Source: Candidatus Woesearchaeota archaeon (GTDB lineage: Archaea; Nanobdellota; Nanobdellia; SCGC-AAA011-G17; JACPNG01). Taken from it: 34,464 nt of DNA. The position numbers and the translations under genes are program-made. Every line of letters begins with the position of its first letter. The stretch's first letter is position 1. Of this stretch, positions 1 through 24,806 are shown piece by piece. The stretch spans positions 1 through 34,464 of the forward strand of contig JACQNI010000046.1 of the NCBI GenBank assembly GCA_016203135.1, read 5' to 3'. The notes beneath the pieces are model-generated. The model did no database searches. It saw only the letters and a program-made list of their open reading frames with translations, and was not told the DNA's origin.

Positions 1-1806
1 AATTTTATAAAACAGCAAAAAGATATTGGTTTGAGTTACGATTGGAATAGAATGATTAAAACTTCAGACCCAGAATATTACAAATGGAATCAATATTTCT
101 TTTTACAGTTCCTGAAAAATGGCTTAGTTTATAAAAAAAAAGCAATTGTGAACTGGTGCCCTAAATGTTCAACAGTTCTTGCTAATGAACAAGTCCATAA
201 TGGAAAATGCTGGAGGCATACCACTTTAGATGTTGAAGTCAAGCAGCTAGAACAATGGTTTATCAAGACAACAAAATATGCAGAAGAGCTTCTAAGTGAT
301 GTTGATGATCTTCAATGGCCTGAAAGAATAAAAATTATGCAGAGAAATTGGATAGGAAAAAGTCAAGGGACTGAGATTAATTTTAATATAAATGGAAAAA
401 ATTGGCCAATATTTACAACCAGACCAGACACTATCTTTGGTGTTACATTCATGGTTATTTCCGCTCAGCATCCAAGACTTATGGAATTGGTAGCCGAAAA
501 ACAGAAAAAACAAGTAGAGGATTTTCTAAAAAAATTAAAAAGTACCAAACAAGAAGACCTAGATAAATTAGAAAAAGAAGGAGTTTTTACTGGATCATAT
601 GCATTGCATCCATTAACAAAAGAAAAAATTCCAATCTGGGTTGGAAATTTTGTTCTTGCAGATTATGGTTCTGGAATGGTAATGGCTGTTCCAGCTCATG
701 ACCAAAGGGATTTTGAATTTGCAAAGAAATACAATATCCCTATAAAGCAAGTAATTGCTAGAAAAAATTATAATTGTATTATAATCCATGGATGTCCAAG
801 TAAGGATGAAAATAATCCTTTAAAAAGAACTTATGATAAACACTGGATCCCTTGGACAAAGAATCAATTATCTTTCTATGGAATTAAAACAGAAACCCCT
901 TTAATGCCTACCCCTTGGGAAGCAGATTATAAAGAATGGAAAAAAGAATTTGAAAAAAATAAAATTACTGAAAATACAATTCTAATTGGGCATAGCTGTG
1001 GAAGTGCATTTCTTGTACGTTGGTTGGGTGATACTAAACAAAGAATTTACAAACTTATTTTAGTAGCCCCTTGGAAAATTGCAGAAAAAGATAATCCAAA
1101 AAAGAAGGCTTTTTATGATTATCCAATAGACGAGACAATTAAATCTAGAGTAAATGAAATCATAATATTTACTTCAAATGATGAAGAAGAAGATGGAAAA
1201 AAAAGTGCAAAGGTATTTCAGAAAGCACTATCAGCAAGATTAATAGAACTTAAAAATAAAGGGCATTACATTATTGGAGATATGGGAACAGAAGAATTTC
1301 CTGAATTGATCAAGGAAATAATTGAAGAAAAAGAAGCCTATGTCAATCCAGGAGTTTTAATCAACTCAAAAGAATTTAATGGACTTTATAGCGATGAAGC
1401 AAAAGAAAAAATCACAAAAGAACTTGAATCTAAAAATTTAGGCAAAAAAACAACAGAGTATAAGCTAAGAGATTGGCTTATTTCAAGGCAAAGATATTGG
1501 GGAACTCCAATACCAATTATTTATTGTAAAACTTGCGGTATTATCCCAGTTCCTGAAAAAGACCTTCCAATTTTATTGCCAGAAAAAGTAAAATTCGGCA
1601 AGGGAAATCCCCTAGAGACGAATGAAAAATTCTTGAAAGTAAAATGTCCAAAATGTAAAAAAATAGCTAAAAGAGAAACAGACACAATGGATACTTTCTT
1701 TGATAGCTCTTGGTATTTCTTAAGATACATTGACAACAAAAACAAAAAAATACCTTATGATAAGAAAAAGATATCTAACTTGATTCCAGAATACCAGTAT
1801 ATCTGA
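1..1806 (+). CDS. leuS: Leucyl-tRNA synthetase, bacterial type, 5'-partial, first part up to in-frame TGA
   Basis: Class I enzyme that charges tRNA-Leu. The frame is open from base 1, so the N-terminus with the HIGH motif lies outside the window. Visible parts, in order: the zinc-binding region (VNWCPKCSTVLANEQV), the CP1 editing domain (TTRPDTIFGVTFMV, then AVPAHDQRDFEFA), a foreign hydrolase domain (separate entry), the end of CP1 (GVLINSKEFNGL), the return to the catalytic core (LRDWLISRQRYWGTPIPI) and DTMDTFFDSSWYFLRY. The frame stops at TGA 1804-1806, exactly where bacterial LeuRS has the first Gly of a conserved GGxEHA stretch; the downstream frame continues the alignment with no gap. 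These motifs match bacterial LeuRS and not the archaeal/eukaryal form, which suggests ancient transfer. Family identity is clear; whether one full-length protein is made is not. Confidence 0.93.
   Translation, partial: NFIKQQKDIGLSYDWNRMIKTSDPEYYKWNQYFFLQFLKNGLVYKKKAIVNWCPKCSTVLANEQVHNGKCWRHTTLDVEVKQLEQWFIKTTKYAEELLSDVDDLQWPERIKIMQRNWIGKSQGTEINFNINGKNWPIFTTRPDTIFGVTFMVISAQHPRLMELVAEKQKKQVEDFLKKLKSTKQEDLDKLEKEGVFTGSYALHPLTKEKIPIWVGNFVLADYGSGMVMAVPAHDQRDFEFAKKYNIPIKQVIARKNYNCIIIHGCPSKDENNPLKRTYDKHWIPWTKNQLSFYGIKTETPLMPTPWEADYKEWKKEFEKNKITENTILIGHSCGSAFLVRWLGDTKQRIYKLILVAPWKIAEKDNPKKKAFYDYPIDETIKSRVNEIIIFTSNDEEEDGKKSAKVFQKALSARLIELKNKGHYIIGDMGTEEFPELIKEIIEEKEAYVNPGVLINSKEFNGLYSDEAKEKITKELESKNLGKKTTEYKLRDWLISRQRYWGTPIPIIYCKTCGIIPVPEKDLPILLPEKVKFGKGNPLETNEKFLKVKCPKCKKIAKRETDTMDTFFDSSWYFLRYIDNKNKKIPYDKKKISNLIPEYQYI
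771..1335 (+). other. RBBP9/YdeN-like serine hydrolase domain inserted in LeuRS CP1
   Basis: About 190 residues sit between FAKKYNIPIKQVI and EAYVNPGVLINS, where LeuRS normally has only a short linker. They read as a complete small alpha/beta hydrolase: an opening beta strand with HGCPS (His at 787), a MPTPWEADYKEWKK stretch typical of the RBBP9/YdeN family, the nucleophile elbow GHSCGS (Ser codon 994-996), a candidate acid in SNDEEED (Asp codons 1180 or 1192) and a catalytic His in KGHY (codon 1264-1266). The triad order Ser-Asp-His is intact, so it may be active. The substrate is unknown; deacylation of mischarged tRNA or of a free aminoacyl compound would be a guess. Domain boundaries are approximate. 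Confidence 0.82.
1804..1806 (+). other. In-frame TGA at a conserved glycine of LeuRS
   Basis: The reading around this codon is PEYQYI-TGA-GAEHACMHLIYARFF; bacterial LeuRS proteins read YIGGxEHAxxHLLYxRFF here. One G-to-T change (GGA to TGA) explains the stop. At least ten other genes in the window end in TGA, so TGA is a normal stop in this genome. The nearest in-frame ATG (1825) would leave out GAEHAC, part of the conserved core. GAGGAG at 1805-1810 resembles a ribosome-binding site but only because it is the Gly/Ala codon run. Confidence 0.85.
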
Positions 1807-20907: not shown

Positions 20908-22281
20908 ATGGATAAAAGTTCAACAAAAAATTTTCTTGAAAGAGAATCTGCCTGGTTAAAGCTTGACAATAATAAAATCTTTAATTTTTGCGAAGATTAT
21001 AAGACTTTCATAAGTGAAAATAAAATAGAAAGGGAAGTTGCTGATTATATTGTATCAATTCTAAAGAAAAAAGGTTTCAATGATATTGCACATTTTTCTA
21101 GTTTAAAATCAGGAGATAAGATATATAAAACCCTCAGAGGAAAAGGAGTTATTGCTGCAACCATAGGCAAAGATAGTTCTAAATCTCATATTTTGGGCAG
21201 CCATATAGATAGTCCAAGATTGGACCTTAAACCTTATCCATTAGTTGAAGATTCAGAGATCGCTTTTATGAAGACACATTACTATGGAGGTATTAAAAAA
21301 TATCAATGGGTTAATGTTCCATTAGCATTACATGGGGTTGTAATAACCAAATCTGGTAAGAAGATTACTTTAAAAATAGGGGAGAATGATAAAGATCCTA
21401 TTTTCATAATTCCAGATCTTTTGCTTCATCTTGCAAAAAAACAATTAGAAAAAATAGGATCAGAACTAATAGAAGGTGAGCAGCTTAATTTGCTCGTAGG
21501 AAGCATTCCAGTTAAAGATAAAAAAATAAAAGAAAGAATAAAGTCAGAAGTTTTAAACAAACTTAACAAAGAATATGGGATAACAGAAGAAGATTTTTTG
21601 GTAGCTGAAATAGAAGTGGTTCCTAGCGCAAAAGCAAGAGATGTTGGTTTTGATAAAAGCTTGATAGCTGCATACGGACAAGACGATAAAGTGTGTGTTT
21701 TTACAACCTTAATGGCTTTTATTGAAGCAGCTAAACCAAGGCAGACTACAATAAGCATGTTTTTTGACAAAGAAGAAATAGGGAGTGTAGGAAATACAGG
21801 TGCTCACTCCTTTGCTTTGTTAAACTTTGCAAAGGAAATTTTAGAACTTTCAAATTCAAAAATATCTGCTGAAAAATTCTTAGAAAATTCAAATTCTATA
21901 AGTGCAGATGTAACAGCTTCTATGGATCCAAATTTTAAAGAGGTTTTCGATCCAAACAACTCATCATTTATAGGCAAAGGCGTTGTAATTGAAAAATACG
22001 GTGGTAGTTTTGGGAAATATTCTTCTAATGATGCTTCTGCAGAATATGTACATTTCTTAAGGGACATCTTAAGCAATAAAAGAATACCATGGCAATCAGG
22101 AGAAGCTGGAAAAATAGATGTTGGCGGAGGCGGAACAATAGCTTTATTCATGTCAAGACACGGAATGAATTGTGTTGACGCCGGTCCTGGACTATTGGCA
22201 ATGCACGCCCCAATGGAAATATCTTCAAAAGTAGATATTTACTCTTCATATCTTTTCTACAAAGCTTTTTTAGAATATTAA
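20908..22281 (+). CDS. M18-family aminopeptidase
   Basis: Zinc aminopeptidase, 457 aa, related to aspartyl aminopeptidase. Metal ligands are visible in GSHIDSPRLDLKP (His99, Asp101), then the AYGQDDKVCVF segment and FFDKEEIGSVGNTGAHS; the C-terminal part has NDASAEY and a His in LLAMHAPMEISSKVD. Family members build large dodecameric shells and remove acidic or other N-terminal residues. It is next to the M32 gene and facing the EamA transporter gene; stop codons overlap within TTAA. Confidence 0.92.
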   Translation: MDKSSTKNFLERESAWLKLDNNKIFNFCEDYKTFISENKIEREVADYIVSILKKKGFNDIAHFSSLKSGDKIYKTLRGKGVIAATIGKDSSKSHILGSHIDSPRLDLKPYPLVEDSEIAFMKTHYYGGIKKYQWVNVPLALHGVVITKSGKKITLKIGENDKDPIFIIPDLLLHLAKKQLEKIGSELIEGEQLNLLVGSIPVKDKKIKERIKSEVLNKLNKEYGITEEDFLVAEIEVVPSAKARDVGFDKSLIAAYGQDDKVCVFTTLMAFIEAAKPRQTTISMFFDKEEIGSVGNTGAHSFALLNFAKEILELSNSKISAEKFLENSNSISADVTASMDPNFKEVFDPNNSSFIGKGVVIEKYGGSFGKYSSNDASAEYVHFLRDILSNKRIPWQSGEAGKIDVGGGGTIALFMSRHGMNCVDAGPGLLAMHAPMEISSKVDIYSSYLFYKAFLEY

Positions 22282-23156
22282 CCAATAACTAAATATCCCC
22301 CAATCAACATAATAATTAATGCTATTGATTTTAAGAATAACTTATGTTCATGAAACAATTCCCCCCCAATTATGGTTGAAAACAATGCGTTTATCTTTAA
22401 TATCGGATATACCAGGCTTATTAATTGAATTGAAACAGCTTTATAAAAAAATAATGTTCCTGTAATCCCAAGCATAGAAGTTAGTAAAAACCACTTGAAA
22501 TTCATTTTAAGACTTTCCATTATCCCTGGAAAACCCTTATAAAATATATTTACTAGTATAAGGAAATTTAACATGCTAAACAGCAAAATAAAAAAGAGAT
22601 AAGTTATTATGTCAATGTTTGCTGCTTTGTTGCTTAAGATGTATCTGTCTAGTGTTACAGAAACAGCAAGTAGCAATAATGCTAAAAAAATATAATGTAT
22701 ATATCTTGACTTAATTATCTTTCTAAAAGGCTCTTTTAAATCAGATATTTTATGGTCTGTTTCTATGATGTAAGATCCAGCTATTATAAGCAAGATTCCA
22801 AATATTGACTTGTTCGTTAAGCTTTCTTTAAGAAAAATCCATGAAATAATTGCAACTAGTGCAGGCCCTAAGCCCAACAAAGGGATAGCCGTCGATATTT
22901 CCAAATGTCTTAAAGCCTTTGCAATATACCACGATGCAAATGTTGAGCATAAAGAGACAATATAAATGTAAATAAAAACAGCTAATTCTAAATCAAAATT
23001 AACCTTTCCAACAAAGAATAATATTATTAAAAAATCTAGGATTGAAATTGAGGTTATGCTCACTAAGGCATGCTCACTCTTCAATGTTTTCTTTTCAACT
23101 ACCAAAGCCAACCCGCTAAATAAGGCTGCCAGTAAAGCAAATAAGTACCATTGAAT
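22278..23156 (-). CDS. EamA/DMT-family membrane transporter with broken or non-ATG start
   Basis: Ten-helix DMT superfamily transporter, with two internally repeated EamA halves (first half ends near LLIIAGSYIIET; second near LIIMLIGGYLVIG). The open frame extends upstream of the only in-frame TTG (23111) through IQWYLFALLAALFSG, which is clearly the first half of membrane helix 1. The extension begins at an ATT (23154-23156), preceded 4 nt upstream by GGTGAT, and directly after an in-frame TGA. An ATG at 23160 is out of frame by one base: removing one A would give ATG-ATT-CAA-TGG. The gene either starts at ATT or has a frameshift at its start. Substrate unknown. Confidence 0.75.
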   Translation of the reverse strand: MQWYLFALLAALFSGLALVVEKKTLKSEHALVSITSISILDFLIILFFVGKVNFDLELAVFIYIYIVSLCSTFASWYIAKALRHLEISTAIPLLGLGPALVAIISWIFLKESLTNKSIFGILLIIAGSYIIETDHKISDLKEPFRKIIKSRYIHYIFLALLLLAVSVTLDRYILSNKAANIDIITYLFFILLFSMLNFLILVNIFYKGFPGIMESLKMNFKWFLLTSMLGITGTLFFYKAVSIQLISLVYPILKINALFSTIIGGELFHEHKLFLKSIALIIMLIGGYLVIG

Positions 23157-23249: not shown

Positions 23250-23335
23250 GGGCCTATGGTGTAATGGACAACACGGTCGGCTTCAAGAAATAGCCAAGGA
23301 CCGATTGATTCCAGGTTCGAGTCCTGGTTGGCCCA
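23250..23335 (+). tRNA. tRNA-Arg(UCG) with 13-nt intron in the anticodon loop
   Basis: Acceptor GGGCCTA pairs with TTGGCCC (one U-U mismatch at 6:67, no encoded CCA). D stem GTGT/ACAC, anticodon stem GTCGG/CCGAT, T arm CCAGG-TTCGAGT-CCTGG. The loop region is 20 nt, so a 13-nt intron is present. The precursor folds into a bulge-helix-bulge: outer helix CGGTC/GACCG, bulge AAG, 4-bp helix GGCT/AGCC, bulge TCA. Cutting each bulge between its second and third base removes AAGAAATAGCCAA (23285-23297) and leaves loop CTTCGGA, i.e. anticodon UCG for arginine. The intron would lie after position 35, inside the anticodon, and not at the usual 37/38 site. ProRS is next downstream but has its own promoter. 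Confidence 0.88.
23285..23297 (+). other. tRNA intron, 13 nt
   Basis: AAGAAATAGCCAA, set by the bulge-helix-bulge described for the tRNA. Its AGCC is half of the 4-bp central helix. Confidence 0.75.
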
Positions 23336-23372: not shown

Positions 23373-24806
23373 ATGTCAAAGCAAAGCAAGCAGGGTTTAA
23401 CAGTAAAGAAAGATGAAAATTTCTCTGAATGGTACCCAGAATTAATCCAAAAAGCAGAATTTGCAGATTATTCTTCAGTAAAAGGATGCATGATCATAAG
23501 GCCTAATGCATATAGCATCTGGGAAAAAATTCAAAACTATTTCAATCAAAGAATTGAAAAATTAAATGTAAAAAACGCTTATTTTCCATTATTTATTCCA
23601 GAGTCTTTTTTTAAAAAAGAATCAGAGCATGCCCAAGGTTTCAAGCCAGAAGTGGCATGGATAGAAAACAAAGAAGAGTCAGAAAGGCTTGCAATAAGAC
23701 CAACATCAGAAACAATTATTTATGACTCATATTCAAAATGGATCAGAAGCCATAGGGATTTGCCGTTAAGGTTAAATCAATGGGGAAATGTTGTCAGATG
23801 GGAGACAAAAGCAACCAGATTATTTCTAAGAACAAGGGAGTTTTTATGGCAGGAAGGACATTGTATTTATGAAACTAAAGAAGAGTGCGATAAAGAAACA
23901 TTGATTTATCTAAAAGAATATAAAAAACTTTGCGAGGATCTTTTAGCAATTCCAGTGATTATGGGCAAAAAAACAGAAAAAGAAAAATTTGCAGGGGCTT
24001 TGTATACAACAAGTATTGAATCCTTCATGCCAGATGGCAAAGCATTGCAAATGGCCACTTCCCATAACCTAGGCCAAGGATTTGCCAAGGCTTTCAACAT
24101 AAAATACCTTGGAAAAGATGAAAAAGAACATTATCCATGGCAAAATTCCTGGGGATTATCTACTAGAACAATAGGCGCTTTAGCAATGATCCATGGGGAT
24201 GATCAAGGCATAGTTCTCCCCCCAAATATTGCTTATAATAAAATTGTAATAGTCCCAATATTATTTGACAAAGATAAAGAAAAAATATTAAAAAAAGCAA
24301 ATGAAATCAAAATTAAGCTTAAAAAATACAATCCTATTCTAGATATAAGAGATTATTCTCCTGGCTGGAAATTTAACGAGTGGGAGCTTAAAGGAATTCC
24401 AATAAGAATAGAGCTTGGTCCAAAAGACATGCAAAAAAAACAAGTTACATTGGTGAGAAGAGATACAAGAAAGAAAGAATTTGTGAAATTCTCAAATTTA
24501 TCAAAAGACATAGATAAAATGCTTAAAGATATACAAAAGAATTTGTTTAATAACGCCAGCAAGTTTCTTGAGCTAAATACAATATATGTAAAAAATATGG
24601 ATGACTTAAAAAGAGCAATTAAAAACAAAAAGCTAGTAAAAGCCCCATTCTGTTTAAATACAAAATGCGAAGATAAGATTAAAGATGAAGCAGATGGAGC
24701 AAAAAGCATCAATATACCACTCGATCAGCCAAAATCTATTAAAGACAACTGCGTTTATTGCAATACCAAAGCAAAAGTCATATGTTTATTTGCAAAGAGT
24801 TATTAA
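23373..24806 (+). CDS. proS: Prolyl-tRNA synthetase, archaeal/eukaryal type
   Basis: Class II synthetase for tRNA-Pro, 477 aa. N-terminal FSEWYPELIQKAEFADYSSVKGCMIIRPNAYSIWE, motif 2 region RLNQWGNVVRWE, FLRTREFLWQEGH, and motif 3 region around LSTRTIGALAMIHGDDQGIVLPP. The C-terminal domain typical of the archaeal/eukaryal form is present and ends FAKSY, with a cysteine-containing zinc-like region (CVYCNTKAKVICLF). No bacterial-type INS editing insert. The stop overlaps by 4 nt the convergent transglutaminase gene. Unlike LeuRS, AlaRS and MetK here, it is of archaeal type. Confidence 0.96.
   Translation: MSKQSKQGLTVKKDENFSEWYPELIQKAEFADYSSVKGCMIIRPNAYSIWEKIQNYFNQRIEKLNVKNAYFPLFIPESFFKKESEHAQGFKPEVAWIENKEESERLAIRPTSETIIYDSYSKWIRSHRDLPLRLNQWGNVVRWETKATRLFLRTREFLWQEGHCIYETKEECDKETLIYLKEYKKLCEDLLAIPVIMGKKTEKEKFAGALYTTSIESFMPDGKALQMATSHNLGQGFAKAFNIKYLGKDEKEHYPWQNSWGLSTRTIGALAMIHGDDQGIVLPPNIAYNKIVIVPILFDKDKEKILKKANEIKIKLKKYNPILDIRDYSPGWKFNEWELKGIPIRIELGPKDMQKKQVTLVRRDTRKKEFVKFSNLSKDIDKMLKDIQKNLFNNASKFLELNTIYVKNMDDLKRAIKNKKLVKAPFCLNTKCEDKIKDEADGAKSINIPLDQPKSIKDNCVYCNTKAKVICLFAKSY

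What the first reader, a model, noticed from the sequence alone, without database searches (positions are those of the whole stretch)
23250..23335. tRNA intron inside the anticodon
A minimal 13-nt intron placed after position 35 and not at the usual 37/38, with a bulge-helix-bulge that draws on anticodon-stem bases (GGCT). The usual assumption would give anticodon UCA instead of UCG, so automated annotation may mislabel this gene. The U-U mismatch at 6:67 is a further oddity.
Basis: partly seen in the sequence, partly recalled or inferred. Interest (0 to 1): 0.55.

Follow-up and report, generated by a model that had tools for sequence, protein, structure and literature searches.

The report
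Archaeal tRNA-Arg with intron-split anticodon
This is a real arginine transfer-RNA gene of an archaeon whose three-letter anticodon is cut in two by a 13-base intron and only becomes whole after splicing; close relatives carry the same gene with the intron two bases further on, or with no intron at all, so standard software easily gives the gene the wrong name.

Summary
Window 23250-23335 (+) is a tRNA gene with a 13-nt intron (23285-23297) after position 35, so the anticodon UCG (Arg) is assembled from U34-C35 | G36 by splicing. Only the 35/36 register gives the four-pair central helix GGCU/AGCC with three-nt bulges; 36/37 and 37/38 (anticodon UCA) do not. Relatives settle it: a genome of the same order with a 21-nt intron at this site has exons identical, 74 of 74, to intronless genes in two genomes of its genus, and the insertion fits only between C35 and G36. 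Of 74 genomes classified (103 in the order), 10 have 35/36 introns, 18 have 37/38 introns and 42 none after one hand correction, nearly all with anticodon UCG. The motif here is strictly a bulge-helix-loop, and 13 nt is an ordinary length. ARAGORN misnames the gene Ser(AGA) or SeC(UCA). Non-canonical archaeal tRNA introns are a known kind. New here: the anticodon-splitting site, its alternation with 37/38 or no intron inside genera, and its occurrence beside a single alpha-type splicing endonuclease, a type described as strict for canonical motifs.

The parts
23250..23284 (+). exon 1 of tRNA-Arg(UCG), positions 1-35, ends ...G30 G31 C32 U33 U34 C35
23285..23297 (+). 13-nt intron AAGAAATAGCCAA between positions 35 and 36
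23298..23335 (+). exon 2, positions 36-73, begins G36 G37 A38
23275..23278 (+). outer helix of the splice motif, 5' strand GGTC
23279..23282 (+). central helix, 5' strand GGCT (positions 30-33)
23283..23285 (+). 5' splice site TC|A; opens into the 9-nt loop TCAAGAAAT
23292..23295 (+). central helix, 3' strand AGCC (in the intron)
23296..23298 (+). 3' splice-site bulge AA|G
23299..23302 (+). outer helix, 3' strand GACC
23255..23255 (+). U6 of the U6-U67 acceptor-stem mismatch (partner U67 at 23329)
   Evidence: orthologues L028 and L034 have U6-A67, L032 has C6-G67

Best explanation
The gene encodes tRNA-Arg(UCG), which reads CGN codons, with a bulge-helix-loop intron between anticodon positions 35 and 36. 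In the transcript G30-G31-C32-U33 pair with AGCC near the intron's 3' end; the splicing endonuclease cuts after the second base of each splice-site triplet (UC|A and AA|G), and the RtcB ligase joins C35 to G36. The complete anticodon therefore exists only in spliced RNA. Shown: the sequence, the pairing, the register, the orthologues, and the presence of one alpha-type EndA gene and an RtcB gene in this genome. Inferred: expression, cleavage by this EndA, ligation, charging with arginine.
For: Geometry: only 35/36 gives 4 of 4 central pairs with two 3-nt splice triplets and a long outer helix; it is also the RNAfold minimum. Natural experiment: L054 (genome G101) minus 21 nt equals the intronless L208 (G044) and L209 (G032) at 74 of 74 bases, all of genus g31, with one possible placement, C35|G36; one flanking gene also matches (77-83% identity). 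24 of 24 pairs (6 intron-bearing x 4 intronless genes) give C35|G36 as the single best placement. Six orthologues came from BLAST alone, before any pattern was used. The mature loop CUUCGGA equals that of 27 of the 41 genes the script called intronless. Control: the same register search gives 35/36 for 10 of 10 of this set (3 of which were found only by a pattern that contains the register) and 37/38 for 12 of 20 other long candidates. Machinery: EndA, RtcB.
Against: No RNA was sequenced. The motif lacks an inner helix, and reviews say that alpha4 enzymes are strict for canonical BHB (PMC4090602, PMC4033280, PMC6379350, passages seen), which is the only EndA type found here. U6-U67 is a mismatch. 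CGN codons are rare (18 in about 10,350 codons of 35 window ORFs), so selection on this tRNA may be weak.
Confidence: 0.95

Rival explanations
1. The intron lies at the usual 37/38 (or 36/37), giving anticodon UCA: a SeC-like or UGA-reading tRNA.
For: One in-frame TGA interrupts the leucyl-tRNA synthetase gene of this window at 1804-1806.
Against: 1 of 4 central pairs in those registers. Orthologues with identical exons fix the site at 35/36. The other eight TGA-ending ORFs among the 35 counted in the window end normally, some overlapping the next start codon. The LeuRS TGA is absent from 7 of 7 family relatives with a match. The 7-bp acceptor and 5-bp T stem are those of an elongator tRNA; that archaeal tRNA-Sec differs is recalled, not tested.
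Confidence: 0.02
2. The gene has no intron and is a tRNA with another anticodon or an enlarged loop (ARAGORN's Ser(AGA)), or a pseudogene.
For: ARAGORN's default call; the U6-U67 mismatch.
Against: Ser(AGA) needs a misplaced stem and has no Ser-type long variable arm (sequence). Ten genomes share the arrangement and intronless orthologues exist. The insert keeps complementary helix bases while the rest of it varies.
Confidence: 0.03

Closest known systems
Archaeal non-canonical BHB/BHL tRNA introns (Thermoproteales, Nanoarchaeum; Marck & Grosjean 2003 and Sugahara 2008, known here only through reviews PMC4090602 and PMC4033280)
   Same: Four-pair central helix, three-nt splice triplets, relaxed hBH/HBh' forms, several introns per tRNA, positions other than 37/38
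   Different: The positions listed in the text of PMC4090602 (20/21, 22/23, 25/26, 29/30, 30/31, 45/46, 53/54, 56/57, 59/60, 'etc.') do not name 35/36; here the anticodon itself is interrupted, and the site alternates with 37/38 and no intron among close relatives
Aeropyrum pernix tRNA-Pro(CGG) intron (PMC4307357)
   Same: Anticodon-loop intron away from the usual site, with splicing shown experimentally
   Different: The passages seen do not give its exact position; A. pernix is described as having an (alpha-beta)2 endonuclease with a specific loop (PMC12397907, PMC6379350)
Canonical 37/38 introns of tRNA-Arg(UCG) in the same order (e.g. L237, L244, L248)
   Same: Same tRNA, usually the same mature loop CUUCGGA, same kind of motif
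   Different: Central helix CTTC/GAAG using the anticodon, intron two bases further 3'

Membership tests
Archaeal BHB-type tRNA intron | 4-bp central helix of exon and intron bases | tested here: met
   GGCU/AGCC, 4 of 4 pairs
Archaeal BHB-type tRNA intron | 3-nt bulge on each side | tested here: inconclusive
   3' bulge AAG present; on the 5' side UCA opens into a 9-nt loop, i.e. the relaxed BHL/hBH form
Archaeal BHB-type tRNA intron | Excision leaves a regular tRNA | tested here: met
   Arg(UCG); identical exons in intronless relatives for orthologue L054
Archaeal BHB-type tRNA intron | Removal by EndA | not testable with these tools
   gene present, activity unknown
Canonical 37/38 intron | Junction after position 37 | tested here: not met
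   1 of 4 central pairs; 24 of 24 placements at C35|G36
tRNA-Arg(UCG) | Nearest mature relatives are Arg(UCG) | tested here: met
   77% and 75% identity to two intronless Arg(UCG) genes, above 12 own-genome tRNAs compared (best Trp, 73%)
tRNA-Arg(UCG) | Charged with arginine | not testable with these tools
   -
tRNA-Sec | Anticodon UCA | tested here: not met
alpha4-type EndA | One single-unit catalytic gene, no second subunit, no long specific loop | tested here: met
   one 186-aa gene with PF02778 + PF01974; no other match at E<=10; colinear with M. jannaschii 1a79 with only single-residue gaps; 18 of 20 genomes searched have exactly one match, 2 of 20 none. The oligomer itself was not tested

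The most novel reading that the evidence does not exclude
In this archaeal order a lone alpha-type (alpha4-like) splicing endonuclease, without the loops or second subunit held necessary for relaxed motifs, removes anticodon-splitting bulge-helix-loop introns and other non-canonical introns. The intron of one tRNA moves between 35/36 and 37/38, or vanishes, within genera while the mature anticodon loop stays the same: intron sliding or repeated gain, against the rule that alpha4 enzymes confine introns to canonical sites.
Probability: 0.5. Interest if true: 0.6.

Novelty: new variant of a known kind. Interest (0 to 1): 0.45.

Why it matters
The anticodon is absent from the gene as a contiguous word, so any annotation that assumes 37/38 gives a wrong amino acid (here 'SeC'). 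The genus-level pairs with and without the intron fix splice sites without RNA data and give a clean system for asking how tRNA introns are gained, lost or moved. The lone alpha-type EndA turns the textbook link between enzyme type and intron repertoire into a direct in vitro test.

Tried and rejected
Readings rejected: Ser(AGA) without intron, SeC/UGA suppressor with UCA, pseudogene (see rivals). UGA reassignment was considered because of the in-frame TGA in LeuRS; rejected, since UGA ends other genes and 7 of 7 relatives with a match lack the stop.

The taxonomic name of the window is unknown; 'archaeon' rests on BHB-type introns, EndA and protein content, and a DPANN-type lineage is my inference. 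A loose tRNA search added four weak loci; none is another Arg(NCG) by ARAGORN, but two of the four gave no call and several tRNA families remain unfound, so the claim that this is the only CGN-reading tRNA is not proved. Script slip: G017/L211 was counted as 37/38 with 38 nt, but ARAGORN reads it as an intronless Arg(UCG); corrected by hand (10 / 18 / 42 / 4 unassigned, of 74 examined). In one search, 5 of the 20 long candidates gave no register (L238, L239, L241, L250, L253), 2 a weak 38/39 (L245, L252) and 1 is Trp-like (L256, weak 32/33). Marck & Grosjean 2003 and Sugahara 2008 are not held, so I cannot say that 35/36 is unreported. '35/36' itself could not be searched.

Full report
What is there. 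Window 23250-23335 (+) matches the Rfam tRNA family from end to end (54.3 bits). It lies between an inverted ORF (22278-23111) and an ORF at 23373 that I read as prolyl-tRNA synthetase (name from my own reading). Between stem bases G31 and C39 stand 20 bases where seven are expected, so 13 are extra. ARAGORN without introns calls Ser(AGA); with introns it calls SeC(UCA), intron 13 nt after position 37.

Register. I scored every junction from 31/32 to 38/39 for a central helix of four pairs and three-base splice triplets. Only 35/36 scores 4 of 4 (GGCT/AGCC; TC|A and AA|G; outer helix GGTC/GACC); 36/37 and 37/38 score 1 of 4. Shuffled 13-mers reach this in 0.6% of cases. RNAfold's minimum for the whole precursor is the same shape, with the 5' side an open 9-nt loop, so it is a bulge-helix-loop. 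Among 21 candidate excisions, only this one left a tRNA of normal size, Arg(UCG).

Relatives. BLAST of the gene against 145 genomes (25 with a match, the window's own genome included) brought six intron-bearing orthologues without use of any motif: L028, L029, L032, L034, L046, L054. A motif pattern then found 10 of 103 genomes of the order, reversed control 0 of 103; eight of these ten are called Arg(UCG) by ARAGORN after splicing at 35/36, the other two (L057, L058) gave no call; both have long extra D-loop sequence in the listing. A covariance model built from nine spliced genes was run on the same 103 genomes. I examined candidates from 74 of them; after one correction 10 have the 35/36 intron, 18 a 37/38 intron, 42 none, and 4 are unassigned. 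Four genomes showed an Arg gene with anticodon ACG, in three of them the only one classified.

The decisive pair. G044 and G032 have an intronless tRNA-Arg(UCG). G101, of the same genus, has the same 74 bases plus 21 inserted ones, and there is exactly one placement of the insert that gives identity: after C35, before G36. One flanking gene also matches (77-83% identity). This does for the orthologue what a cDNA would do. For the window's gene and five others the best junction was searched freely against four intronless genes: 24 of 24 comparisons returned C35|G36 as the single best. The same script machinery returned 37/38 for 12 of 20 other long candidates, so it is not biased to 35/36.

Alternation. 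Within genus g31 the site is 35/36 or empty; in g25, G026 has 35/36 and G092 has 37/38; in g18, G047 has 35/36 and G019 none. The mature loop stays CUUCGGA in these. The motif form varies: L032, L046 and L054 have both outer and inner helices; L012, L028 and L029 lack most of the inner one; L034, L056, L057 and L058 lack most of the outer one.

Enzyme. The genome has one EndA gene (186 aa; PF02778 + PF01974) and no second match at E<=10. Of 20 genomes of the order searched, 18 have exactly one match and 2 none (G004, 59% complete; G014, 100% complete). Nine of the ten 35/36 genomes have one; the tenth is G004. The proteins are single-unit, 171-244 aa between stops, without large internal insertions, and the own one aligns with M. 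jannaschii EndA with only single-residue gaps. Reviews state that alpha4 enzymes are strict for canonical motifs and that only (alpha-beta)2 and epsilon2 enzymes remove relaxed ones efficiently (passages of PMC4090602, PMC4033280, PMC6379350); an alpha'2 enzyme can cleave a BHL at 37/38 in full-length pre-tRNA. The same genome has other candidate non-canonical introns: the D-loop of Gly(UCC), Gln(UUG) and Thr(CGU), and two each in Arg(CCU) and an Ile(UAU)-like gene (motif evidence only). RtcB ligase is present.

Identity of the tRNA. The mature form is nearest to the two intronless Arg(UCG) genes compared (77%, 75%), then to own-genome Trp (73%) among 12 own tRNAs compared. CGN codons are 18 of about 10,350 in 35 window ORFs, so this is a low-demand tRNA.

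Novelty. Archaeal tRNA introns away from 37/38 are well known: tRNAscan-SE 2.0 counts 673 in 217 genomes (PMC8450103, passages), and an anticodon-loop intron off the usual site has been confirmed experimentally in A. pernix (PMC4307357, passages and section 10). In the literature held I found no case named as 35/36 and nothing on DPANN tRNA introns with a lone alpha-type EndA, but the two main catalogues are not held. I therefore rate it a new variant of a known kind, not a new kind.

Noticed in passing
window 832-1311 (+), inside the LeuRS ORF 31-1806: A Ser_hydrolase (PF06821, E 1e-13, aa 268-427) domain is inserted next to the editing domain of leucyl-tRNA synthetase.
   Followed up: partly
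window 1804-1806 (+): In-frame TGA in the only full LeuRS match of this genome, at a codon that is sense in 7 of 7 family relatives with a match; nonsense mutation, strain mixture or assembly error.
   Followed up: partly
L280/L281, G000:C88:10383-13196: RtcB ligase matches in two pieces about 1.4 kb apart within one 1013-aa open frame, as an in-frame insert (intein-like) would give.
   Followed up: no
L022, L024, L206: Other tRNA genes of this genome appear to carry two introns each (Arg(CCU), an Ile(UAU)-like gene, and a gene read as Asp by eye).
   Followed up: partly
L015 489-574 (-): tRNA-Trp of the same genome also has a U6-U67 mismatch.
   Followed up: no
L226, L254, L262, L271: tRNA-Arg genes with anticodon ACG in four genomes of the order (G079, G077, G064, G076), unusual for archaea as far as I recall.
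   Followed up: no
L250, L263: tRNA-Arg(UCG) genes with C instead of U at position 33 (loop CCUCGGA), one with a 37/38 intron (G053), one without (G012).
   Followed up: no
L208 and L209, within 120 bases downstream of the tRNA: A second copy of the tRNA 3' end (CCTGTAGGCCCATAT) lies just downstream of both intronless Arg genes, like a remnant of an integration site (listing).
   Followed up: no
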